From Thalassomonas viridans (GTDB lineage: Bacteria > Pseudomonadota > Gammaproteobacteria > Enterobacterales > Alteromonadaceae), in NCBI RefSeq assembly GCF_000948985.2, contig NZ_CP059733.1, forward strand, positions 2,976,001-3,040,000: a stretch of 64,000 nt of DNA, written 5' to 3'. Below, one piece after another: positions 2,625 through 63,533 of the stretch. The translations under genes and the position numbers were made by a program. The notes beneath the pieces were generated by a model. It searched no databases. It had not been told where the DNA came from and worked only from the letters and a program-made list of their open reading frames with translations. Position 1 is the stretch's first letter; each line of letters opens with the position of its first letter.

Positions 2625-2701
<77 letters not shown>

Positions 2702-2770
2702 TCCGGATGCTTCAATTATAGGGTTATAATCGAATAGCCGATAACGTTTTAATTCTGTTATCAGGGAATT

Positions 2771-2847
<77 letters not shown>

Positions 2848-2915
2848 TCCGGATGCTTCAGTTATAGGGTAATAACCGAATAGCCGATAACGTTTTAATT
2901 CTGTTATCAAGGAAT

Positions 2916-2992
<77 letters not shown>

Positions 2993-3060
2993 TCCGGATG
3001 CTTCAGTTATAGGGTAATAACCGAATAGCCGATAACGTTTTAATTCTGTTATCAAGGAAT

Positions 3061-3137
<77 letters not shown>

Positions 3138-3205
3138 TCCGGATGCTTCAGTTATAGGGTAATAACCGAATAGCCGATAACGTTTTAATTCTGTTATCAA
3201 GGAAT

Positions 3206-3282
<77 letters not shown>

Positions 3283-3356
3283 TCCGGTATACTTCTTTAA
3301 TAAGTATCACTTAGTTTTCACTTCACCGATGACTATTAGATAGTATCAATAGGAAT

Positions 3357-3433
<77 letters not shown>

Positions 3434-15432: not shown

Positions 15433-15508
15433 GCGGCTGTAGCTCAGTTGGTAGAGCATCACGTTGCCAACGTGAATGTCACGAGTTCGAGTCTCGTTAG
15501 CCGCTCCA
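15433..15508 (+). tRNA. tRNA-Gly (GCC) 1
   Basis: 76 bases with encoded CCA. Anticodon GCC in the CGTTGCCAACG arm. First gene of the array. Confidence 0.97.
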
Positions 15509-15565
15509 ACTTCTCTTTTTAGGGAAGGATTCAGGGAATACTACTCATCCCAGTGTTGATGAAAC

Positions 15566-15639
15566 GGCGGGTTGGCAGAATGGCTATGCAGCGGATTGCA
15601 AATCCGTGGATCTCGGTTCGACTCCGGGACCCGCCTCCA
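15566..15639 (+). tRNA. tRNA-Cys (GCA) 1
   Basis: 74 bases with CCA. Anticodon GCA in GGATTGCAAATCC; the acceptor stem GGCGGGT pairs with ACCCGCC. Confidence 0.97.
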
Positions 15640-15643
15640 TTTT

Positions 15644-15730
15644 GCCCGGGTGGTGGAATTGGTAGACACAAGGGATTTAAAATCCCTCGCTGGTAACAGC
15701 GTGCCGGTTCAAGTCCGGCCCCGGGTACCA
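15644..15730 (+). tRNA. tRNA-Leu (TAA) 1
   Basis: 87 bases with CCA and a long class II variable arm. Anticodon TAA in GGGATTTAAAATCCC. It begins four bases after tRNA-Cys. Confidence 0.97.
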
Positions 15731-15792
15731 TTTCATCTTCCAGGTTGAGAGTATAAAAGCCAAATAGCATTTGGCGTCAGATAAAATTTATT

Positions 15793-15868
15793 GCGGCTGT
15801 AGCTCAGTTGGTAGAGCATCACGTTGCCAACGTGAATGTCACGAGTTCGAGTCTCGTTAGCCGCTCCA
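15793..15868 (+). tRNA. tRNA-Gly (GCC) 2
   Basis: Identical to tRNA-Gly 1. Followed by a spacer that recurs after the 16089-16107 remnant. Confidence 0.97.
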
Positions 15869-15910
15869 AGTTTTATATTAAGTCTTATCCCTTGAAGGGT
15901 ATAGCAATAA

Positions 15911-15986
15911 GCGGCTGTAGCTCAGTTGGTAGAGCATCACGTTGCCAACGTGAATGTCACGAGTTCGAGTCTCGTTAGCCGCTCCA
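15911..15986 (+). tRNA. tRNA-Gly (GCC) 3
   Basis: Identical 76-base copy with CCA. Confidence 0.97.
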
Positions 15987-16088
15987 ATTTTTTGTGTTCT
16001 TCCTATACGAAGGGCACGGTGAGCAAGGTAAAGGTAACTGCTTGAGTGTTGCGAGGCAAACAAATGTCAACTCTCCACCTAAGTACGC

Positions 16089-16107
16089 AGTCTCGTTAGC
16101 CGCTCCA
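16089..16107 (+). pseudogene. 3' remnant of tRNA-Gly
   Basis: The 19 bases AGTCTCGTTAGCCGCTCCA match the T-arm/acceptor 3' end of tRNA-Gly exactly; the 5' three quarters are missing and replaced by unrelated sequence (15987-16088). The spacer after it matches the spacer after tRNA-Gly 2, so a full gene once stood here or a 3'-end duplication was left by a recombination event. Confidence 0.8.
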
Positions 16108-16147
16108 ATTTTTTTAAGTCTTTATCCTTGAAAGGGTATAGCAATAT

Positions 16148-16223
16148 GCGGCTGTAGCTCAGTTGGTAGAGCATCACGTTGCCAACGTGAATGTCACGAG
16201 TTCGAGTCTCGTTAGCCGCTCCA
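16148..16223 (+). tRNA. tRNA-Gly (GCC) 4
   Basis: Identical 76-base copy. It opens the first of three Gly-Leu doublets. Confidence 0.97.
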
Positions 16224-16282
16224 AATTTTTAATTGTTTTGCTGCTTGTTCGTTAATGAAACGATAGGTGAGGTGAAAGCTTT

Positions 16283-16369
16283 GCCCGGGTGGTGGAATTG
16301 GTAGACACAAGGGATTTAAAATCCCTCGCTGGTAACAGCGTGCCGGTTCAAGTCCGGCCCCGGGTACCA
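16283..16369 (+). tRNA. tRNA-Leu (TAA) 2
   Basis: 87 bases with CCA, identical to copy 1, second half of a Gly-Leu doublet. Confidence 0.97.
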
Positions 16370-16424
16370 TTTTCATTATTGAGTAAGAGCGAGATAAAAA
16401 TTAGAAAATAAGTAGTTCTACTAT

Positions 16425-16500
16425 GCGGCTGTAGCTCAGTTGGTAGAGCATCACGTTGCCAACGTGAATGTCACGAGTTCGAGTCTCGTTAGCCGCTCCA
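16425..16500 (+). tRNA. tRNA-Gly (GCC) 5
   Basis: Identical 76-base copy with CCA. Confidence 0.97.
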
Positions 16501-16557
16501 TTTTCTAATAACCAGTTTACTACCTTTCGTCTGAATGACGATCTGGCAAGTGAAGTT

Positions 16558-16644
16558 GCCCGGGTGGTGGAATTGGTAGACACAAGGGATTTAAAATCCC
16601 TCGCTGGTAACAGCGTGCCGGTTCAAGTCCGGCCCCGGGTACCA
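16558..16644 (+). tRNA. tRNA-Leu (TAA) 3
   Basis: 87 bases with CCA, identical to the other Leu copies. Confidence 0.97.
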
Positions 16645-16694
16645 TTTTAACGTTAGCTAATCGTTAAGATGGTATTAAAACTGATGAACAAAAT

Positions 16695-16770
16695 GCGGCT
16701 GTAGCTCAGTTGGTAGAGCATCACGTTGCCAACGTGAATGTCACGAGTTCGAGTCTCGTTAGCCGCTCCA
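16695..16770 (+). tRNA. tRNA-Gly (GCC) 6
   Basis: Identical 76-base copy with CCA. Confidence 0.97.
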
Positions 16771-16819
16771 ATTTTTTTACTACTCGGCGTTGGTGAAACG
16801 CAGGTAAAGTGAAAGCTTT

Positions 16820-16906
16820 GCCCGGGTGGTGGAATTGGTAGACACAAGGGATTTAAAATCCCTCGCTGGTAACAGCGTGCCGGTTCAAGTCCGGCCCCGG
16901 GTACCA
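16820..16906 (+). tRNA. tRNA-Leu (TAA) 4
   Basis: 87 bases with CCA. The gtgaaagcttt spacer just before it also precedes tRNA-Leu 2, a trace of block duplication. Confidence 0.97.
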
Positions 16907-16971
16907 TTTTCACTGACGTGTTAAGCGAGTTAAGTGAAATGTTGGACTGGGATTCAGTAAAAACCTGTAAA

Positions 16972-17047
16972 GCGGCTGTAGCTCAGTTGGTAGAGCATCA
17001 CGTTGCCAACGTGAATGTCACGAGTTCGAGTCTCGTTAGCCGCTCCA
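16972..17047 (+). tRNA. tRNA-Gly (GCC) 7
   Basis: Identical 76-base copy with CCA. Confidence 0.97.
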
Positions 17048-17088
17048 TTTTCACCAGGTGAATGCAACAGGTAATATTGGCTTATAAA

Positions 17089-17162
17089 GGCGGGTTGGCA
17101 GAATGGCTATGCAGCGGATTGCAAATCCGTGGATCTCGGTTCGACTCCGGGACCCGCCTCCA
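17089..17162 (+). tRNA. tRNA-Cys (GCA) 2
   Basis: Identical to tRNA-Cys 1, 74 bases with CCA. Confidence 0.97.
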
Positions 17163-17186
17163 TTCTTGAGTAAATCAAATTTCTAT

Positions 17187-17262
17187 GCGGCTGTAGCTCA
17201 GTTGGTAGAGCATCACGTTGCCAACGTGAATGTCACGAGTTCGAGTCTCGTTAGCCGCTCCA
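17187..17262 (+). tRNA. tRNA-Gly (GCC) 8
   Basis: Last tRNA of the array, followed at once by a T-rich stretch (atttttcttttc) that may end transcription. Confidence 0.97.
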
Positions 17263-55590: not shown

Positions 55591-57195
55591 ATGAAAATAA
55601 AACGATCGATTTGTAAGATAACAGGTTTTACACTTGCCTTAGTATCCTTAACCATCTCTGCCGCACAAGCAGGCACGTCGAAAGACAATAAGGCTGGCGA
55701 AAAGCTTTATGTCGAACATTGTCAGGCATGCCATGGCGTTGGCCGTTTAGGCGCTATGGGACCGGCGTTATTTCCTGAAAACCTGTCCCGCCTGAGAAAA
55801 AATAAAGCGGTTAAAGTGATTGAAAATGGCCGGGCCGCCACACAAATGCCTGCTTTTAATAAAACCTTAACGCAGGCGGAAATAGCCAGTTTAACGGATT
55901 ATATCTATACTCCGGCAAAAGAATTGCCCCAGTGGAGCCTGGCGGATATTAAGGCTACGAACATCCAGCACTTTGATCAAAGTAAGTTACCTGACAAGCC
56001 GCAGTTTGATGCGGATTTAATGAATTTATTCATTGTGGTTGAATTAGGCGATCACAGCGCCACCTTGCTTAACGGCGACACTTTTGAGCCCATTACCCGC
56101 TTTAAAACCCGTTTCGCCTTGCACGGCGGGCCAAAATATTCGCCCGATGGCCGTTTTGTCTATTTCGCCTCGCGTGACGGCTGGATCAGCAAATATGACA
56201 TTTACAATATGAAAACGGTTAGTGAAGTCAGGGCAGGGATTAATACCCGTAATTTAGCCGTGTCGAGTGACGGTAAATATGCCATTGTTGGTAACTACCT
56301 GCCTCATAATGTCGTGATTTTAGACACGAAAGACTTATCGCCCATCGAAATGATCGAAACAAAAAGCAGCGAAGGTGTCAGCTCCCGTGTCAGCGCCGTA
56401 TACAACGCACCGCCGCGCCATAGTTTTATCGTCGCCCTTAAAGACGTTAAAGAAGTATGGGAAATTCCCTACAGCGATAAAGGTGGCGTTGATGTCTACA
56501 AAGGCTGGGCGCACGATTACAGAAAAGACGGCGGCGAAGGAAAAGTTGAGAACTGGAAAAGCGAAGACAGGTTTCCGGTACGCCGAATTAAAACCCAGGA
56601 TTACTTAGACGACTTTTTCTTTGACCCCGAATATATCAACCTGATAGGTACAGCACGCAACAGCCACAATGGCCAGGTTATCAACATAGATACCAAGAAA
56701 AAAGTGGCCACCATTGAGCTTACCGGCATGCCTCATTTGGGCTCAGGCATTACCTGGGATTATCAGGGGAAAGAAGTTTTTGCTTCTCCAAATATAAAGG
56801 AAGGCAAAGTTACCGTAATTGAAATGGAGAACTGGCAGGTTATCAAGGAAATAAAAACTGAGGGGCCAGGCTTCTTTATGCGTAGCCACAGTAAATCACC
56901 TTACGCCTGGGCTGATGTGTTTTTTGGCCCAAATAAAGAAAAAGTGCATATTATCAAAAAAGACACATTAGAAATCGTTAAAACCATAGCGCCGGCGCCG
57001 GGTAAGACCGCTGCGCATGTTGAATTTACTAAAGACGGAAAATATGTTTTATTGAGTGTTTGGGATAATGACGGTGCGGTAATTGTTTACGATGCCAATA
57101 CGTTAGAGGAAGTAAAGCGTCTGCCGATGAAAAAACCTTCAGGGAAGTATAACGTGTACAACAAAATTAATTATGAGCGGGGCACAAGCCATTAA
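55591..57195 (+). CDS. nirN: NirN, dihydro-heme d1 dehydrogenase
   Basis: 534 residues. Signal peptide to about Ala27; heme c site CQACH at 44-48; cd1-like propeller resembling NirS (HVEFTKDGKYVLLSVWDNDG, GKYNVYNKINYE). Shorter loops and divergence from NirS, with NirS already present, indicate NirN, which oxidises dihydro-heme d1 and hands d1 to NirS in the periplasm. Its stop codon overlaps that of the convergent integron integrase. Confidence 0.88.
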   Translation: MKIKRSICKITGFTLALVSLTISAAQAGTSKDNKAGEKLYVEHCQACHGVGRLGAMGPALFPENLSRLRKNKAVKVIENGRAATQMPAFNKTLTQAEIASLTDYIYTPAKELPQWSLADIKATNIQHFDQSKLPDKPQFDADLMNLFIVVELGDHSATLLNGDTFEPITRFKTRFALHGGPKYSPDGRFVYFASRDGWISKYDIYNMKTVSEVRAGINTRNLAVSSDGKYAIVGNYLPHNVVILDTKDLSPIEMIETKSSEGVSSRVSAVYNAPPRHSFIVALKDVKEVWEIPYSDKGGVDVYKGWAHDYRKDGGEGKVENWKSEDRFPVRRIKTQDYLDDFFFDPEYINLIGTARNSHNGQVINIDTKKKVATIELTGMPHLGSGITWDYQGKEVFASPNIKEGKVTVIEMENWQVIKEIKTEGPGFFMRSHSKSPYAWADVFFGPNKEKVHIIKKDTLEIVKTIAPAPGKTAAHVEFTKDGKYVLLSVWDNDGAVIVYDANTLEEVKRLPMKKPSGKYNVYNKINYERGTSH

Positions 57196-58148
57196 AGCAA
57201 ATCCATGGGGCTAACAGTTCCTGCATAATGTTGCCCTAAAACATGCGTATAGATTTGCGTGGTGCGGAGATCATTATGCCCCAGTAATTCTTGTACTGTA
57301 CGGATATCCCGGCCCTGAAGTAATAGCTGGGTTACAAAAGAATGCCTAAAGGTATGGCAGTTAACTTTTTTATTGATTGCCGACTTTTTTACGGCAGGTT
57401 GTAAAGCCTTTCTGATACCGGTGTCGTGAAGATGGTGGCGACATAACTCTCCAGTGAGTGGGTGAGGGCACAAACTTGAAGAAGGAAAAATGAACATCCA
57501 GCCTGGCGAGCGAAATGCGTTGGGGTATTTTTTACTTAGTGCATTAGGTAGTGATGGACCTATTCCTAGCTGGTTGTCTCTTTGCTGAAGGGCTATAGCT
57601 TGCTCTATGTAACCAGAAAGGGGAGCTGCACACGATTGGGCTAAGAGTGTTTGTCGGTCTTTATTCGCTTTACCGTCTCTAACTGTAAGGGAAAGAGTTT
57701 GCAGGTTGATGTCTTGAACTCTTAATCGCAAACATTCATTTACTCTTAAACCACTACCGTAAAGCATTTTGATAACGAGTTTGGCTTTACCCGACATATG
57801 TAACAGAATACGGCGGACTTCATCACTTGATAGTACTACGGGCAGTTGTCTTTGTTTAGTAGCAAGAGTAAAGTTTAACTCACCAAGCTCTATTCTCATG
57901 ACTTGATGGTAAAGAAATACTAAGGCGTTGAGGGCTACTTTTTGAGTATTTACAGCTGCATGGCCGTTGGTTACCAACCAGCTGAGAAAGTTTTTTACTT
58001 CTGCAGGCCCCATTTCAGATGGGTGTTTTTTATTATTAAATAGAATAAATCTTTTGATCCAATATAGATAACTCTTTTCCGTACGGATACTGTACCCTCT
58101 AAGCCTTATTTCAGCTCTGACAGACTCAAGAAATGGACTGGGTGCCAT
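57192..58148 (-). CDS. intI: IntI, integron integrase (tyrosine recombinase)
   Basis: 318 residues from the ATG at 58148 with GGAG upstream (a GTG at 58163 is possible). SAM-like N-terminal domain; catalytic residues are seen in YGSGLRVNECLRLR (Arg), CHTFRHSF (His/Arg), LGHNDLRTTQIYTHVL (His and the Tyr nucleophile). The extra segment between the Arg and CHTFRHSF, with GWMFIFPSSSLC then HHLHDTGIRKALQPAV, is the IntI-specific insertion absent from XerCD. It catalyses attI x attC recombination. LexA-like control is suggested by the upstream box. Confidence 0.95.
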   Translation of the reverse strand: MAPSPFLESVRAEIRLRGYSIRTEKSYLYWIKRFILFNNKKHPSEMGPAEVKNFLSWLVTNGHAAVNTQKVALNALVFLYHQVMRIELGELNFTLATKQRQLPVVLSSDEVRRILLHMSGKAKLVIKMLYGSGLRVNECLRLRVQDINLQTLSLTVRDGKANKDRQTLLAQSCAAPLSGYIEQAIALQQRDNQLGIGPSLPNALSKKYPNAFRSPGWMFIFPSSSLCPHPLTGELCRHHLHDTGIRKALQPAVKKSAINKKVNCHTFRHSFVTQLLLQGRDIRTVQELLGHNDLRTTQIYTHVLGQHYAGTVSPMDLL

Positions 58149-58166
58149 AGGATTAAGCTCCACAAC

Positions 58167-58204
58167 TTATGTATTCCTATACAGTATTATTGGTTTACTG
58201 TAAA
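58167..58204 (-). promoter_or_regulatory. intI promoter overlapped by a LexA-like box
   Basis: On the minus strand, -35 TTTACA (58204-58199) and -10 TATAGG (58181-58176) have a 17-base spacer. TTATGTATTCCTATACAGTA (58167-58186, plus strand) fits the CTGT-N8-ACAG LexA box with one mismatch in the core and covers the -10. SOS control of intI is known in other integrons. Confidence 0.65.
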
Positions 58205-58389
58205 AATCAAGCTCGTTTTTTCTCAGAGTTTTCTCGTTTTTTACTGTGATTCATGAAAATATCAATATACTCAATTGGTTAGCTTTTCTACTTGGAAATA
58301 CGAGGAATAAGGGACGGAGATATGAGGAATGCTCGTTTCCCTTAAGATATAAAGTAGAGGGGGAGCCTAATATATTGTAATATAATCGA

Positions 58390-58418
58390 TTATGATTGTT
58401 TTTATTGTGTGGTATAAT
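58390..58418 (+). promoter_or_regulatory. Candidate cassette promoter Pc
   Basis: Perfect -10 TATAAT (58413-58418) with an extended TGg element and a weak -35 TTATGA at 17 bases, pointing to the first cassette. It lies just before the attI junction. Confidence 0.6.
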
Positions 58419-58455
58419 GTGCAAAACGCGCATGCCGGATATACAAATGTTAGCC
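58400..58455 (+). other. Putative attI site and first cassette junction
   Basis: GTTAGCC at 58449-58455 is the same R' core found at the ends of attC1 (GTTAGCC) and nearly of attC2 (GTTAGCT). Its position between intI and the first cassette gene marks the G/TT crossover at 58449/58450. The left limit of attI is not defined by sequence alone. Confidence 0.6.
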
Positions 58456-58480
58456 ATCTTTAAAATTCGGAGAGTTCTTA

Positions 58481-58957
58481 ATGACTATTTCAGAAATATT
58501 TCTCGAAAAAGGTTTATTGGCTGTAATTCTTAGTGTATTTACATTTGTTTTAGCACGTGTACTGGAAAGGTACAAAAGGGATCAAGCTGTTTTTACTGAG
58601 CTGGCAAAGCTACGTTCTAAATCTTTAGTCGAAGCTTTCAATTTGTTATCTGAGTACGAATCCAAAGTTCATGGAACTCTCGTTCATGTAGTTAAAAAAG
58701 AAACTGAACTAGCTAAAGAAATGAATGGAGTTGCCCAAGAGCTACATGCACAATTAATTCACATGGTTGACGCAAACAGATTTTTACTCGGTGAGGAACT
58801 TTATAAACTTTGTATTGAATTCTCAAATCTTCAAACCAGTAAACTCAAAGCGGTTGATATTAGCAATTTGGACAAATTAAAAAGTATTGATCTTGAAATA
58901 TCAAGAATAAGAGTGCAAGTACAAAGATATTTGCCTGGTTTTAAAGTTCCAGAGTAA
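58481..58957 (+). CDS. Integron cassette 1: membrane-anchored helical protein of unknown function
   Basis: 158 residues. One N-terminal membrane helix (about 10-26, GLLAVILSVFTFVLARVL) is followed by a long, mostly helical cytoplasmic part (KRDQAVFTELAKLRSKSL and on). Composition is AT-rich relative to the core genes. GGAG precedes the ATG by nine bases, within the cassette. The stop lies just before the attC left half at 58960. No family recognised. Confidence 0.8.
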   Translation: MTISEIFLEKGLLAVILSVFTFVLARVLERYKRDQAVFTELAKLRSKSLVEAFNLLSEYESKVHGTLVHVVKKETELAKEMNGVAQELHAQLIHMVDANRFLLGEELYKLCIEFSNLQTSKLKAVDISNLDKLKSIDLEISRIRVQVQRYLPGFKVPE

Positions 58958-58964
58958 ATGGCTA

Positions 58965-60886
58965 ATCGGGTAAGGGCTGGTATCTAGCCAGCCCTCCCCA
59001 CAACACCCTGCATGCGGGTCCGCACAGGGCGTTTCATTTAGGATAGTGAAGCGCAATCCAACCATCACGCAATGAGTAAAGCCCCTCGGATTTCAGATAC
59101 GCTAACGATAGCGCCTGGTTGATCCCCGGAGTTTTCGCACTACGCCATGGCCCTTTGCTGGTAATGCCACACGCAACGGCAGCTTGTACCTGCACGCCCA
59201 GTTTCATCAAGTTTCTTACTTTAGTCCTCGGCTTGCGCCATTGGCGCCAATAGGCCATCCTGACCCTGCGCCTGATCCAGTGATCTAAATCGACACAGAG
59301 CTGGTAAGCATTGGCGATACCAAAGTAGTTTATCCAGCCACGTAGATATTGACTGAGCTTGAATAACTGATAGCGCATCGATACGCCCCAGTTGCGGTTC
59401 GTTAATTTCCGGACACGTTGCTTGAATGCATGCAGTGTTTTCGGATGCCATTGAATGCGCCCTCGCTGGAAGGTAAATCCCAGGAATTTACATTGGCTGG
59501 CTTTAACGACTTGGCTTTTGGTGGTATTCACCACCAGTTTTAGACGCTTTTCAAGGAACTGACTGATACTGCGCAGTACCCGCTCACCGGCCCGCTGACT
59601 TTTTACCAGAATAGTAAAGTCATCGGCATACCGGGCAAACGGATGTCCTCGTTTCTCAAGTTCTTTATCCAAAGGATCGAGCATGATGTTTGCCAGTAAA
59701 GGGGATAATGGTCTTCCTTGTGGCACACCTCCTCTACTTTCCCTGTAAAGCTGGTTATCGATAACCCCAGCTCGCAAGTAACGTTTAATCAATCTAAGCA
59801 ACGCCTTATCCCTGACGCGGTAGCCAAGGAGAGTCATTAATCGGTCATGATTAACGCGGTCAAAGAACTTAGACAGGTCAACATCAACCGTAATACGGCG
59901 TCCCGTTTTGATGATGCTTTGTACCTGTTTAACCGCCTGTTGCTCATTTCGATAAGGTCTAAACCCGAAGCTGTTATTCGAGAACTGCGGATCAAAGATG
60001 GGCGTGAGTACTTGGGCAATAGCTTGTTGAATCACGCGGTCGACAACGGTTGGAATACCCAGTTGGCGTTTACCACCATCGGGTTTATCTATTTCAGCAC
60101 GTCTAACCGGTGAGGGTTGATAGCATCCTGCCTTTACTTCACTAGCAACGTGCTCCCATTTACCTGATTTTGCCCAAGCGGGGAACTCATCGATGGTCAT
60201 GCCATCAATGCCAGCAGCCCCCTTATTGGCTCGAACGCGTTGCCAGGCCTGCTGTAAGTTTGCAGGTTGCAGCACACGCTCAAGTAGATTGTCACCAAAG
60301 GCTGGTTGCATCTCATGACGCTGACTCACATCAACACCGGTCGGCGCATGTGTTTTCAGATATGACAAGACTCCTCCTTTATACTAAATGTTCAGGCCTT
60401 CACCGTGTCCCAACCATTACGATGGGCGTTGGGCTACTATGCCGTCTGCTGACTTCTGCTTAATCACTCAGCCCGTTGCCGGACTAAGCGCTATCGGTTT
60501 TCATCTGTTTCGCTCTCCAAGCCCGATGAACTTCCTGGAGCCAAGGCATTTGTATACCAGCGCCTCACTGGTTTTCTGCCGATCGCTTGTTAAGCAGATC
60601 TCCCCAGATAAGGACATGAACTTTCCCTGCACAACTGCATCATTTACGGTGGCCGTTAGATCACATGGCTTTGTTGTCTTGTGCCAACTCGCCTCCAGCC
60701 TACGCCTCATATGATGTTCTTGTTCATCAGCTCGCAGTTTTGCTAGCGGCTTCCTCCAGACCATACCTCGCGGATAAGCCCTTGCCATTCGCTAGTAGTT
60801 AGCGTTTAATAACAATCAGTTAAATAAACGGTGATCTTCCTACAGAGGACTTTCACCTCATTAGTTCATGCCCATGCTGGGCGTAC
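58965..60886 (-). mobile_element. Group IIC-attC intron, 1922 bp, inserted in attC of cassette 1
   Basis: On the minus strand the element begins GTACGCCCAGCATGGGCATG (60886 leftward), one base from the usual GTGCG start, and ends TTACCCGAT at 58965. Near the 3' end, CGCCCTGTGCGGACCCGC then ATGCAGGGTG forms domain V and GGGCTGG/CCAGCCC forms domain VI. 5' exon CTTGT and 3' exon TAGCC flank it, the known target in attC bottom strands. Bases 60369-60886 are the non-coding domains I-III. Confidence 0.88.
59034..60368 (-). CDS. Group II intron-encoded reverse transcriptase/maturase
   Basis: 444 residues from a TTG start close to GGAGGA. RT blocks include AGIDGMTIDEFPAWAK, the catalytic VDVDLSKFFDRVNHDRLM and FARYADDFTIL (YADD). 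The C-terminal maturase (GIIM) domain covers about 345-420 (RGWINYFGIANAYQLCVDLD, WIRRRVRMAYWRQWRK). No HNH endonuclease domain is present, as usual for group IIC. It splices the intron RNA and reverse-transcribes it after insertion. It is encoded within domain IV. Confidence 0.95.
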   Translation of the reverse strand: MSYLKTHAPTGVDVSQRHEMQPAFGDNLLERVLQPANLQQAWQRVRANKGAAGIDGMTIDEFPAWAKSGKWEHVASEVKAGCYQPSPVRRAEIDKPDGGKRQLGIPTVVDRVIQQAIAQVLTPIFDPQFSNNSFGFRPYRNEQQAVKQVQSIIKTGRRITVDVDLSKFFDRVNHDRLMTLLGYRVRDKALLRLIKRYLRAGVIDNQLYRESRGGVPQGRPLSPLLANIMLDPLDKELEKRGHPFARYADDFTILVKSQRAGERVLRSISQFLEKRLKLVVNTTKSQVVKASQCKFLGFTFQRGRIQWHPKTLHAFKQRVRKLTNRNWGVSMRYQLFKLSQYLRGWINYFGIANAYQLCVDLDHWIRRRVRMAYWRQWRKPRTKVRNLMKLGVQVQAAVACGITSKGPWRSAKTPGINQALSLAYLKSEGLYSLRDGWIALHYPK

Positions 60887-60953
60887 ACAAGTCACTACAC
60901 TCAGAAATTTTACTCGCTGCGCTCCTAAAATTCTGGTGAGTGAGGCGTTAGCC
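60887..60953 (+). other. attC1, right part (left five bases at 58960-58964)
   Basis: Imperfect palindrome CTCAGAAATTTTA/TAAAATTCTGGTGAG followed by R' GTTAGCC (60947-60953). Joining GGCTA (58960-58964) to ACAAG (60887 on) across the intron gives R'' GGCTAAC, the exact complement of R'. The full site would be 72 bases. Confidence 0.8.
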
Positions 60954-60986
60954 TACAGAGTTACCCACAAACAAAAGGATTAGCAT

Positions 60987-61892
60987 ATGGATGCAAAGGA
61001 TAGAGTCAAACTTGGCTTAAATGTAATTATCAAAAAAAAGCCATATTTAGCAGGTCTTGTATCTTCATTAACAGGGAAGGATTGTTCTACTGAAGATGCT
61101 TTTGTCTTAGAAAATAATCAAGATGTCCTACCTTTTATTTCAACTTTTTTACCTCGTTTAGATACACCAGAATCTAGTGATTTAAAAAGTGTACTTTCTG
61201 AGTTAATCAAGAAAAAAACGGATGGAAAAACAATATTTTTGATCTGTGGCGCAAGTGCAGCCGGAAAAGACACCTTAGCATCTTTAGTTAAAGAGAATCT
61301 TTATGACAAAAATGAAAATACTGAGTATTTATATTGTACAAAATATACGACGAGAGAACGAAGAGCAAATGAAGGGCTTGATGAATATAGCAAAAAACTG
61401 GAGCCTAGTGGTAACTATGTTTATTGTAAAACACTAGAGGAAATGAATTCATTTGAAGTTGATTTAGAATATAGTTTGTATGGCTGTCACTATAGCCTAT
61501 GTAAAAAAGATCTATCTTCGTCAGAAGCTTCACATCAGCATTTAGCATGCATATATGGAAAGCTTGAAAACATAGCGAAAATCAAACAAGAGTTGTTTGA
61601 TAAATACAATAGAATACCCTTTTCAATTCTGATTAAAGCACCGATTGAATCGCACAGTCATCGAATCAATGGTAGACATACTATGTCGAAATCGGAAAAA
61701 TCAGATCGTGTAAGGGAAATGGAAAGACAATCTAGATTCATCAAATCAAAAGGGCATGAGTTTGAAGCAAATTTTGATTTGGTTGTAAATAATGGAAATG
61801 ATGAACGCTTATCAGATAATGCAAATTTAATAACAGAGTTTATTCACGAGTCTATTTTGTGGGCTAACAAGGCATTAAAGCCGGATTCGTAA
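60987..61892 (+). CDS. Integron cassette 2: guanylate-kinase-like P-loop protein
   Basis: 301 residues. An N-terminal stretch of about 75 residues has no known fold. Walker A is GASAAGKDT at 88-96, followed by YCTKYTTRERRANEG, the GMP-binding TTR-x-x-R segment of guanylate kinases, then a substrate loop around YSLYGCHYSL and a late basic helix. It may be a nucleotide or small-molecule kinase. AAGGA precedes the ATG. The last codons (ANKALKPDS) lie inside attC2, as often in cassettes. Confidence 0.8.
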   Translation: MDAKDRVKLGLNVIIKKKPYLAGLVSSLTGKDCSTEDAFVLENNQDVLPFISTFLPRLDTPESSDLKSVLSELIKKKTDGKTIFLICGASAAGKDTLASLVKENLYDKNENTEYLYCTKYTTRERRANEGLDEYSKKLEPSGNYVYCKTLEEMNSFEVDLEYSLYGCHYSLCKKDLSSSEASHQHLACIYGKLENIAKIKQELFDKYNRIPFSILIKAPIESHSHRINGRHTMSKSEKSDRVREMERQSRFIKSKGHEFEANFDLVVNNGNDERLSDNANLITEFIHESILWANKALKPDS

Positions 61893-61962
61893 TAGTTTGC
61901 TCGGTTCCGCTTCGCTTCACATTCTAGCAAACTATTACAAACCGCTTAATGCGACGTTAGCT
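61862..61962 (+). other. attC2 recombination site
   Basis: R'' GGCTAAC (61862-61868) and R' GTTAGCT (61956-61962) flank L-box pairing GCATTAA/TTAATGC and a perfect 11-bp stem AATAGTTTGCT/AGCAAACTATT. Length 101 bases. It closes cassette 2. Confidence 0.85.
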
Positions 61963-61974
61963 TAAAGGAAGGAT

Positions 61975-62952
61975 ATGACGAAGTTTTTATATAAATATAT
62001 GCCTCTAAGAGAAGAGTTTTTCGATAACTTCATGATTAGAGCCACCCCAGTTATGGCATTAAATGACCCATTTGAAGGCTTTTTTAATGAAAAACAAATA
62101 GAAGATGCCGATCATCAACAAAGAGAATATTATCGTGCTCTAGGAAAAAATGTGTATGAGAAGCACGATGGAATGATCGAAGATTTGATGGGGACTGTGC
62201 AAGAAGACTTCTTTGATTTAGGTATTCTTTCTTTTACTGAAGACCATAATAACCCTCTTATGTGGGCACATTACGCTAACGATCATAAAGGAGTTGTCGT
62301 TGAGTTTAACTTGTGTGAGCCTTTGTTTGATGACTCAATACAATATCTTAATGACAAGAGAAATAGATTCGGTAAGAATTATTTAGGTGATGTTTTTGAA
62401 TTCCCTGAAAAAGTTGCATATCGTAGGCAACTTCCATCATTTGATAGACCGGAGTTATCTGCACCAGATTCAGAGCATGAGTATCATTGGATAAAGTTTA
62501 ATCGAGAAATTTTATTTACTAAATCCGAAGATTGGATTTATGAGAAAGAGCATCGTTCGATTGTTCAACTGCATGATGCAGATTCAATAATTTGCCAAGA
62601 AAACAAATATATACGCAAAGTATGTTCTTCTGACAAGTCTATAGAGGTTGTCACGCTTGACAATGATAAAATTCAAGTTATTTATCCAAAAGAGTATGAA
62701 ATGCATGAAGATATGGGAGATGAGAGTATAAAGAAAGAAGTATACTTTTTGTCTAAGGATTACAGTGAACCAGCAATACACTTGTTTAGACTTAACCCTG
62801 ATGCAATTAGCCGTATCTATTTTGGGTGTAAGTCTCCCTGTGGTGGACTAGCTGCCTCAATAAAGGAAAGTGGTAAGCTTAAAAAACTGGATGGGCTATA
62901 TAAAATGGAGCATAGTAAAAAATACTATCATCTTGATTCAGTGAAAATTTAA
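61975..62952 (+). CDS. Integron cassette 3: DUF2971 domain protein
   Basis: 325 residues. N-terminal LYKYMPLREEFFDNFMIRAT and LNDPFEGFF, then ILSFTEDHNNPLMWAHYAND and GVVVEFN, and a W-x-Y-E-x-E-H-R motif (SEDWIYEKEHRSI) define DUF2971, common in accessory and defence-associated regions but functionally uncharacterised. AAAGGAAGG precedes the ATG. Composition is AT-rich. Confidence 0.85.
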   Translation: MTKFLYKYMPLREEFFDNFMIRATPVMALNDPFEGFFNEKQIEDADHQQREYYRALGKNVYEKHDGMIEDLMGTVQEDFFDLGILSFTEDHNNPLMWAHYANDHKGVVVEFNLCEPLFDDSIQYLNDKRNRFGKNYLGDVFEFPEKVAYRRQLPSFDRPELSAPDSEHEYHWIKFNREILFTKSEDWIYEKEHRSIVQLHDADSIICQENKYIRKVCSSDKSIEVVTLDNDKIQVIYPKEYEMHEDMGDESIKKEVYFLSKDYSEPAIHLFRLNPDAISRIYFGCKSPCGGLAASIKESGKLKKLDGLYKMEHSKKYYHLDSVKI

Positions 62953-63013
62953 GCTAACAAATAACAAATAAGGATAGGTGTCGCGCAGCCGACACCTTAT
63001 CAGGTTGTTGAAC
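62952..63013 (+). other. attC3, terminal cassette site
   Basis: R'' AGCTAAC (62952-62958) and a degenerate R' GTTGAAC (63007-63013, fits GTTRRRY) enclose a stem AGGTGTCG/CGACACCT. Length 62 bases. The mismatch between R boxes is typical of the last site in an array. Confidence 0.65.
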
Positions 63014-63533
63014 AAGCCCGATCCCTCTGCTTATATAGTAAAAAAACTCAAGTTGATTTTTGGTTGTGGTAGTATTTCGGCTATTCTGCTCTTTTCTTAA
63101 GGCGAGTTGTTGCCTGCCGTGGGCGGCATGATGATTAACCTGCTGTATCATAAGTTTTTCCCTCCTGTATTTTTACTCAACCCTTATTCGGAGCTTCGTA
63201 GCCCTATGATCGTCGTCGCACAATACCGATAAAGTTCATAGATTGACGGCAGCAAGGACAAGGGCAGAGGGTTTTGGCTTACTCCGGTGGTGCTGCGCTA
63301 ATGTGAACATGCAGCAGCAACTGGATACGTTTGAGCAATGCTTTTTGGTTAGGGCAGGCAAAGCCGTAATCCCGGCAGCGATGAAAGTGCCAAATAATCT
63401 TAAGGAGCTGTATGTTTGTTTTCATAACCGCAAACCGTTCTAACAAGTGACTATGGCGCCAATTCCTAATTTTTAACGCATTTTAGCTGTACAGGGCGGG
63501 TCAATACGGCAAGAAATCGCCCGCCCTTTTGCT
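63014..63533. other. Intergenic region with a possible gene fragment
   Basis: No intact gene is supported. A 43-codon open stretch after a stop (63101-63232; LLPAVGGMMINLLYHKFF) looks like the tail of a larger protein, perhaps of EcsC type, but has no start. A 66-codon frame at 63243-63443 has no convincing ribosome-binding site. Confidence 0.35.

What the first reader, a model, noticed from the sequence alone, without database searches (positions are those of the whole stretch)
58960..60953. Group IIC intron splits an attC site and its removal restores a perfect attC
Excising 58965-60886 joins GGCTA to ACAAG, giving R'' GGCTAAC opposite R' GTTAGCC. Exact boundaries (5' exon CTTGT, 3' exon TAGCC) follow from this. 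The intron starts GTACG, not the usual GTGCG; that third-position change could affect splicing.
Basis: partly seen in the sequence, partly recalled or inferred. Interest (0 to 1): 0.72.

Follow-up and report, generated by a model that had tools for sequence, protein, structure and literature searches.

The report
Integron-targeting self-splicing intron in a cassette
A complete mobile self-splicing intron has landed inside the recombination site of the first gene cassette of a small chromosomal integron; this is a textbook behaviour of a known intron family, and the 'odd' first letters that caught the eye are normal for that family.

Summary
Window 58965-60886 (minus strand) is a full-length, apparently intact group IIC-attC intron that interrupts the attC of the first cassette beside an intact integron integrase. 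Joining the flanks gives a 72-nt attC that folds end to end. Four uninterrupted relatives of this attC, one in the same genome, read straight through the junction. Restoring attC alone leaves the boundary open by one base; relatives inserted one base upstream settle it. The worry about GTACG is not supported: 75 of 83 distinct 5' ends, the window's included, begin GTACG, so it is the normal start of this lineage. EBS1 (ACAAG) pairs fully with IBS1 (CUUGU), and a bulged A lies 7 nt from the 3' end. I found nothing outside the described group IIC-attC family: a new member of a known kind. One side result may merit a short note: in 4 relatives EBS1 changes together with the flank, in 3 of them with a one-base shift of the insertion point, and these 3 do not group together in the protein tree.

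The parts
57192..58163 (-). intI: integron integrase, 323 aa, open frame
   Evidence: TIGR02249 387.4 bits (cut-off 265), PF00589 and PF13495; only match over the cut-off in the genome; 44-45% identical to the best match in each of three congeneric genomes
58449..58455 (+). GTTAGCC at the attI/cassette 1 junction (start of cassette 1)
   Evidence: complementary to the R'' box of cassette 1's own attC
58481..58957 (+). cassette 1 ORF, 158 aa, unknown function
   Evidence: no relative in the 97 other genomes searched
58960..58964 (+). GGCTA: 5 of 7 bases of the R'' box of attC1, cut off by the intron (on the minus strand the 3' exon TAGCC; its first T would be IBS3)
58965..60886 (-). group IIC-attC intron, 1922 nt, GTACG...CCGAT
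   Evidence: Rfam; boundaries by attC1 restoration, natural empty sites and CTTG|GTACG relatives
58965..59034 (-). domains V and VI, model end exactly at the 3' splice site
   Evidence: RF00029 45.4 bits; -41.3 kcal/mol, z -5.53
58971..58971 (-). bulged A in domain VI, 7 nt from the 3' end: likely branch point
   Evidence: fold; coordinate; role recalled from group II biochemistry
59034..60368 (-). intron-encoded protein, 444 aa: reverse transcriptase (YADD) and maturase domain; no endonuclease domain among the Pfam hits
   Evidence: PF00078 141.9 bits, PF08388 68.5 bits, TIGR04416 405.4 bits, GsI-IIC RT 6ar1 E 6e-132
60395..60490 (-). ribozyme segment matching group-II-D1D4-1
   Evidence: RF01998 66.9 bits
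60613..60777 (-). domain I segment matching group-II-D1D4-3
   Evidence: RF02001 134.7 bits
60678..60682 (-). EBS1 (5'-ACAAG-3', intron nt 205-209)
   Evidence: changes together with the flank in L037, L054, L058, L060
60887..60891 (-). IBS1 (5'-CUUGU-3' on the minus strand), the end of the 5' exon
   Evidence: five Watson-Crick pairs with EBS1
60887..60953 (+). remaining 67 nt of attC1 (last 2 bases of R'', L'', L', R' GTTAGCC at 60947-60953)
   Evidence: uninterrupted relatives in G000, G002, G070, G019
60987..61892 (+). cassette 2 ORF, 301 aa, weakly like guanylate kinase / P-loop proteins
   Evidence: TIGR03263 E 6.2e-05, 22.7 bits, far below its cut-off of 160.45; PF24883 20.8 bits, below its cut-off; no relative in the 97 other genomes searched
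61862..61962 (+). attC2, uninterrupted
   Evidence: bottom strand -23.1 kcal/mol, z -5.79; 33 similar sites read in 17 of 19 loci of relatives (from the matches)
61975..62952 (+). cassette 3 ORF, 325 aa, DUF2971
   Evidence: PF11185 35.8 bits; PADLOC candidate PDC-S31 E 3e-25

Best explanation
A group IIC-attC (class C-attC) mobile intron reverse-spliced into the bottom strand of attC1, the recombination site of the first cassette in a small chromosomal integron. It recognised the folded attC hairpin plus CUUGU/U through EBS1 (ACAAG; EBS3 is recalled and was not located), and its reverse transcriptase copied it into the chromosome. The intron now lies antisense to the cassettes. It cuts R'' after its fifth base and puts 1,922 bp between R'' and the rest of attC1, so attC1 should no longer work for IntI. 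Inference: cassette 1, the intron and cassette 2 are therefore locked together and could leave only as one unit through attI and attC2. Splicing from a minus-strand transcript would rejoin CUUGU-UAGCC in RNA but would not repair the DNA site. Shown: anatomy, insertion point, open protein frame, EBS1-IBS1 complementarity, empty relatives. Inferred: activity, the target-recognition steps, loss of attC1 function and the locking of cassettes.
For: Rfam domains with the domain V/VI model ending exactly at 58965. Open RT/maturase frame. The protein falls in a 45-row branch (100/99 support) of the 84-row tree together with the 7 plasmid IEPs that were put in. TTGT before and T after the intron at 37 of 42 distinct sites with both ends. 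EBS1 ACAAG pairs 5/5 with CUUGU. The four matches to attC1 that begin exactly at 60887 in the (capped) listing run without an insert through the junction, 4 of 4. Integrase frame open. In a congeneric genome (G001) a 90% identical intron sits between other flanks. Published description of IIC-attC introns: bottom strand, antisense to cassettes, TTGT/T (PMC7923331, passages), and S.ma.I2 splitting a first cassette gene from its attC (PMC8876359, passages).
Against: No RNA data; splicing and mobility are not shown. The R-box inverted repeat is not above chance across the 42 sites at 6/7 or better. A consensus scan found no plus-strand sigma-70-like promoter in 58100-61100, so an outward promoter as told of S.ma.I2 was not seen; the scan found fewer sites (2) than its shuffles (mean 5.5) and is weak. 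No other genome searched carries cassette 1 at all (0 of 97), so the empty sites are sister attCs, not the same cassette.
Confidence: 0.95

Rival explanations
1. A group IIC intron of the ordinary, terminator-targeting kind that happened to hit this hairpin by chance.
For: IIC introns insert mostly at terminator motifs, a smaller fraction at attC (PMC4424553, passages), and attC is a hairpin. Not every close relative sits in an attC-like junction: L027 reads CTTGT|TGTAA.
Against: The IEP groups with the plasmid-array IEPs, apart from 39 rows of other, largely Bacillota introns. The junction is TTGT|T and the R'', L'', L', R' order is complete.
Confidence: 0.03
2. The intron is a dead relic: GTACG or another change prevents splicing.
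For: Its start differs from the general consensus GUGYG (PMC4424553, passages). Two fragments of related introns lie elsewhere in the same genome, so decay occurs there.
Against: GTACG is the start in 75 of 83 distinct 5' ends. Frame, YADD motif, domain V/VI and EBS1 are intact.
Confidence: 0.15
3. The boundary is 58966-60887 (intron UGUACG...CCCGA), one base off.
For: Gives the same joined attC.
Against: Relatives with CTTG directly before GTACG and TTAG after CGAT (L054, L058, L060) cannot have an intron that begins UGUACG. The Rfam model ends at 58965.
Confidence: 0.02

Closest known systems
[quoted passage not shown]
   Same: Splits the first cassette gene from its attC; class C-attC intron
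   Different: Here a chromosomal integron of an unnamed bacterium (probably a marine gammaproteobacterium, inferred from its relatives) with cassettes of unknown function; no plus-strand promoter seen by consensus scan. Its sequence was not compared
IIC-attC introns in plasmids of Citrobacter, Klebsiella, Enterobacter, Vibrio and Aeromonas (L009, L156-L161)
   Same: GTACG start, CCGAT end, T after the intron; EBS1 ACAAG in L156-L161; antisense to the resistance cassettes in L156-L161
   Different: 72.4-79.5% DNA identity over the match; the L158 flank ends ACTGT instead of TTGT
Introns of Paraglaciecola sp. MB-3u-78 and Alteromonas aestuariivivens (L026-L028, L053)
   Same: 81-83% identical IEP, same ends; among the nearest rows in the tree
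   Different: Other insertion sites; L027 and L053 have 3' flanks TGTAA and TATAA
GsI-IIC RT (PDB 6ar1) and other, non-attC IIC introns
   Same: RT/maturase, E 6e-132 over residues 28-439
   Different: Recalled: terminator-targeting. In 23 of 39 non-attC loci with a readable start, 18 have G at position 3 and 5 have A (my count)

Membership tests
group IIC-attC (class C-attC) introns | Group II ribozyme domains including domain V/VI at the 3' end | tested here: met
group IIC-attC (class C-attC) introns | IEP with RT and maturase X domain, no endonuclease, phylogenetically with the integron-borne IEPs | tested here: met
group IIC-attC (class C-attC) introns | Insertion in the bottom strand of attC, antisense to cassettes | tested here: met
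group IIC-attC (class C-attC) introns | Junction TTGT/T (IBS1/IBS3) | tested here: met
   CTTGT|TAGCC; definition from PMC7923331 passages
group IIC-attC (class C-attC) introns | EBS1 complementary to IBS1; hairpin in place of IBS2 | tested here: inconclusive
   EBS1 met and hairpin present; absence of EBS2 pairing and the place of EBS3 were not tested
group IIC-attC (class C-attC) introns | Splicing and retromobility | not testable with these tools
   needs RNA
general group II boundary rule 5'-GUGYG...AY-3' (PMC4424553, passages) | 5' end GUGYG | tested here: not met
   GUACG here; shared by 75 of 83 distinct 5' ends, so a property of the lineage
general group II boundary rule 5'-GUGYG...AY-3' (PMC4424553, passages) | 3' end AY | tested here: met
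   ...CCGAU
integron | intI gene with TIGR02249 score over the cut-off | tested here: met
integron | attC sites with R''/R' and foldable L boxes | tested here: met
   attC1 (joined) and attC2; the third site, read as 62946-63035, did not fold convincingly
integron | attI and Pc promoter | not tested
   only the GTTAGCC junction at 58449 was seen

The most novel reading that the evidence does not exclude
IIC-attC introns can change where in attC they land by small changes of EBS1. The usual ACAAG reads (C)TTGT|T. In three relatives that do not group together in the tree, EBS1 reads CAAGC or CAAGG and the intron sits one base upstream (CTTG|TT); in one, ACCAG goes with TTGGT. The window intron shows the usual register: the R''-L'' stretch ACAAG of attC1 is identical to EBS1, and this identity sets the insertion point.
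Probability: 0.6. Interest if true: 0.35.

Novelty: new member of a known kind. Interest (0 to 1): 0.2.

Why it matters
It adds one clean, full-length case in a chromosomal integron whose boundary is backed by natural empty sites. It also removes a false alarm: GUACG is the normal 5' end of IIC-attC introns, so annotation that expects GUGYG may miss or misplace them. If attC1 is dead, the intron has joined two cassettes into one unit, which bears on how introns shape cassette arrays.

Tried and rejected
Compensation of A3 through the hairpin loop before the TCTG.AGGAA motif of domain I: the loop is GCGA or GTGA in introns with A3 as well as in those with G3, so no coupling is seen there. The true epsilon' partner was not identified and coupling was not tested otherwise.

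R''/R' inverted repeat as a general test for attC targets over 42 sites: not decisive. In arrays R' beyond GTT belongs to the next cassette (recalled), which weakens this test.

A strict RYYYAAC/GTTRRRY scan of 80 kb (G000:C1:3035000-3114999) missed attC2, whose boxes here are GGCTAAC/GTTAGCT; I did not use its 10 hits.

Looking for the same cassettes without the intron: neither ORF has a relative in the 97 other genomes searched. Promoter scan: no plus-strand site. Results against the EBS1 reading: L191 has TTGGT with EBS1 ACAAG; L158, L188, L193 and the rearranged L141 copy pair at 3, 4, 3 and 0 of 5 positions, and L058 at 4 of 5. L186 has CTTG before GTACG, but its 3' flank reads TATG, which does not fit a simple shift, and its EBS1 could not be read.

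Full report
What is there. Window 57192-58163 (minus) encodes an integron integrase in an open frame, the only match in the genome over the TIGR02249 cut-off. Rightwards follow three cassettes. GTTAGC boxes at 58449, 60947 and 61956 and their partners GGCTA (58960), GGCTAAC (61862) and GCTAAC (62953, within AAGCTAAC) mark the borders. Each cassette's R'' box is complementary to its own first bases, as expected of cassettes that once circularised (that rule is recalled). Cassette ORFs are 158, 301 and 325 aa. Between the first five bases of R'' and the rest of the first attC lies 58965-60886.

The insert. Read on the minus strand it starts GTACG and ends CCGAT. Rfam finds group-II-D1D4-3 (134.7 bits), D1D4-1 (66.9) and Intron_gpII (45.4), the last ending exactly at 58965. 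Domains V and VI fold as two hairpins (-41.3 kcal/mol, z -5.53) with a bulged A seven bases from the 3' end. The 444-aa ORF carries RVT_1 and GIIM and no other Pfam hit, scores 405.4 bits with TIGR04416, and matches GsI-IIC RT over residues 28-439. The window's protein lies in a 45-row branch (100/99) that holds the 7 plasmid IEPs and leaves out 39 rows of other introns, largely Bacillota. The DNA search finds one full copy in the genome, a 5' fragment at C1:3076809 and a 3' fragment at C1:1639798.

The insertion point. Joining the flanks gives a 72-nt attC whose bottom strand folds end to end (z -4.24); the interrupted remainder loses the R helix. Matches in the same genome (92%), G002 (94%), G070 (84%) and G019 (80%) begin exactly at 60887 and are preceded by TA without an insert: 4 of 4 inspected, from a match list that one search had cut. 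Two further matches, in G003 (89%) and G052 (88%), run from intron sequence through to the end of this attC, so related attCs have been hit elsewhere. Because A stands after both ends on the plus strand, excising 58966-60887 would give the same attC. L054, L058 and L060 have CTTG|GTACG and CGAT|TTAG, which only fits an intron that begins with G and ends with T; this fixes 58965-60886.

GTACG. With a pattern that allowed A or G at position 3, the IIC-attC introns caught all had A there (GTACG, or ATACG in L116/L153 and L154). Of 39 other loci (L063-L105 without L064, L068, L082 and L095), 23 gave a start: 15 GTGCG, 3 GTGTG and 5 GTACG, with four of the 15 from one species (my count from its rows). 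With a probe taken from the window intron's first 60 bases, which favours similar starts, 75 of 83 distinct 5' ends (window included) were GTACG, 2 GTACA, 2 ATACG, and one each TAACG, GAACG, GTAGG and GTGCG. The six copies in plasmid resistance-gene arrays (L156-L161) are among the 75. So the third-position A is ordinary here. I found no partner loop that changes with it.

Target recognition. The domain I loop GGCACAAGACAAC gives EBS1 ACAAG (60678-60682), fully complementary to CUUGU. Of 60 introns with a readable loop (24 of the 83 had none by the automatic reading; L058 was then added by hand), 51 are TTGT with ACAAG; CTTG goes with CAAGC or CAAGG in 3, and TGGT with ACCAG in 1; ACGAG with TTGT keeps pairing through a wobble (1); the other 4 pair incompletely. 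L191, read apart, is TTGGT with ACAAG, against the reading. Many of the 51 are near-copies, so the information lies in the few that differ. The three shifted introns do not form one group in the tree: at least 2 changes, counted against the labelled rows only, and the label is not clustered (shuffles as low in 95 of 500). Two of the three have long branches, and a shifted ancestor with later returns is not excluded. Literature searches on IIC-attC introns gave listings in which I saw no title or abstract start on this shift. The most relevant papers (Quiroga and Centron 2009; Leon and Roy 2009) were seen only as references, so it may well be in print.

What it does. The published behaviour of the family covers this case: bottom-strand attC insertion, antisense orientation, TTGT/T (PMC7923331, passages), and S.ma.I2 splitting a first cassette gene from its attC, disturbing transcription from Pc and bringing an outward promoter (PMC8876359, passages). 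Class C-attC introns have also been told of in Shewanella genomes (PMC10011109, passages). Here a consensus scan shows no plus-strand promoter in 58100-61100. That attC1 is dead and that cassettes 1 and 2 now travel together is inference from the loss of the R helix.

Verdict. Real, well placed, and a new member of a known kind. Interest is low apart from the EBS1 side result.

Noticed in passing
L037, L054, L058, L060: EBS1 of IIC-attC introns changes together with the 5' flank, in three of them with a one-base shift of the insertion point (CTTG|TT). L120, L186 and L192 also have CTTG before GTACG but no readable EBS1, and L186's 3' flank does not fit a simple shift.
   Followed up: partly
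G000:C1:3076809-3076959 and G000:C1:1639798-1639883 (in L006, L007): Two remnants of related introns: one matching intron nt 13-164, the other only the 3' end.
   Followed up: partly
L136 (G000:C1:1684568-1684631): An attC-like site 92% identical to the remainder of attC1, about 1.35 Mb from the integron; whether an array surrounds it was not checked.
   Followed up: partly
window 61975-62952: Cassette 3 protein is DUF2971 and matches PADLOC candidate defence models PDC-S31 (E 3e-25), so it may be a phage-defence cassette.
   Followed up: no
window 2625-3433 and 15433-17262: Repeated tRNA arrays: six tRNA-Met (cat) in a row, and fourteen genes of tRNA-Gly, -Leu and -Cys.
   Followed up: no
G000:C1 706707, 1720091, 2903651, 3364554, 3483372: Other reverse transcriptases: four with 509-aa frames, in two pairs with equal scores, and a 46% identical one of 438 aa at 3483372; probably other group II introns.
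   Followed up: no
L009 (Citrobacter plasmid pLNU-11): Three IIC-attC intron 5' ends and two 3' ends within 9.1 kb.
   Followed up: no
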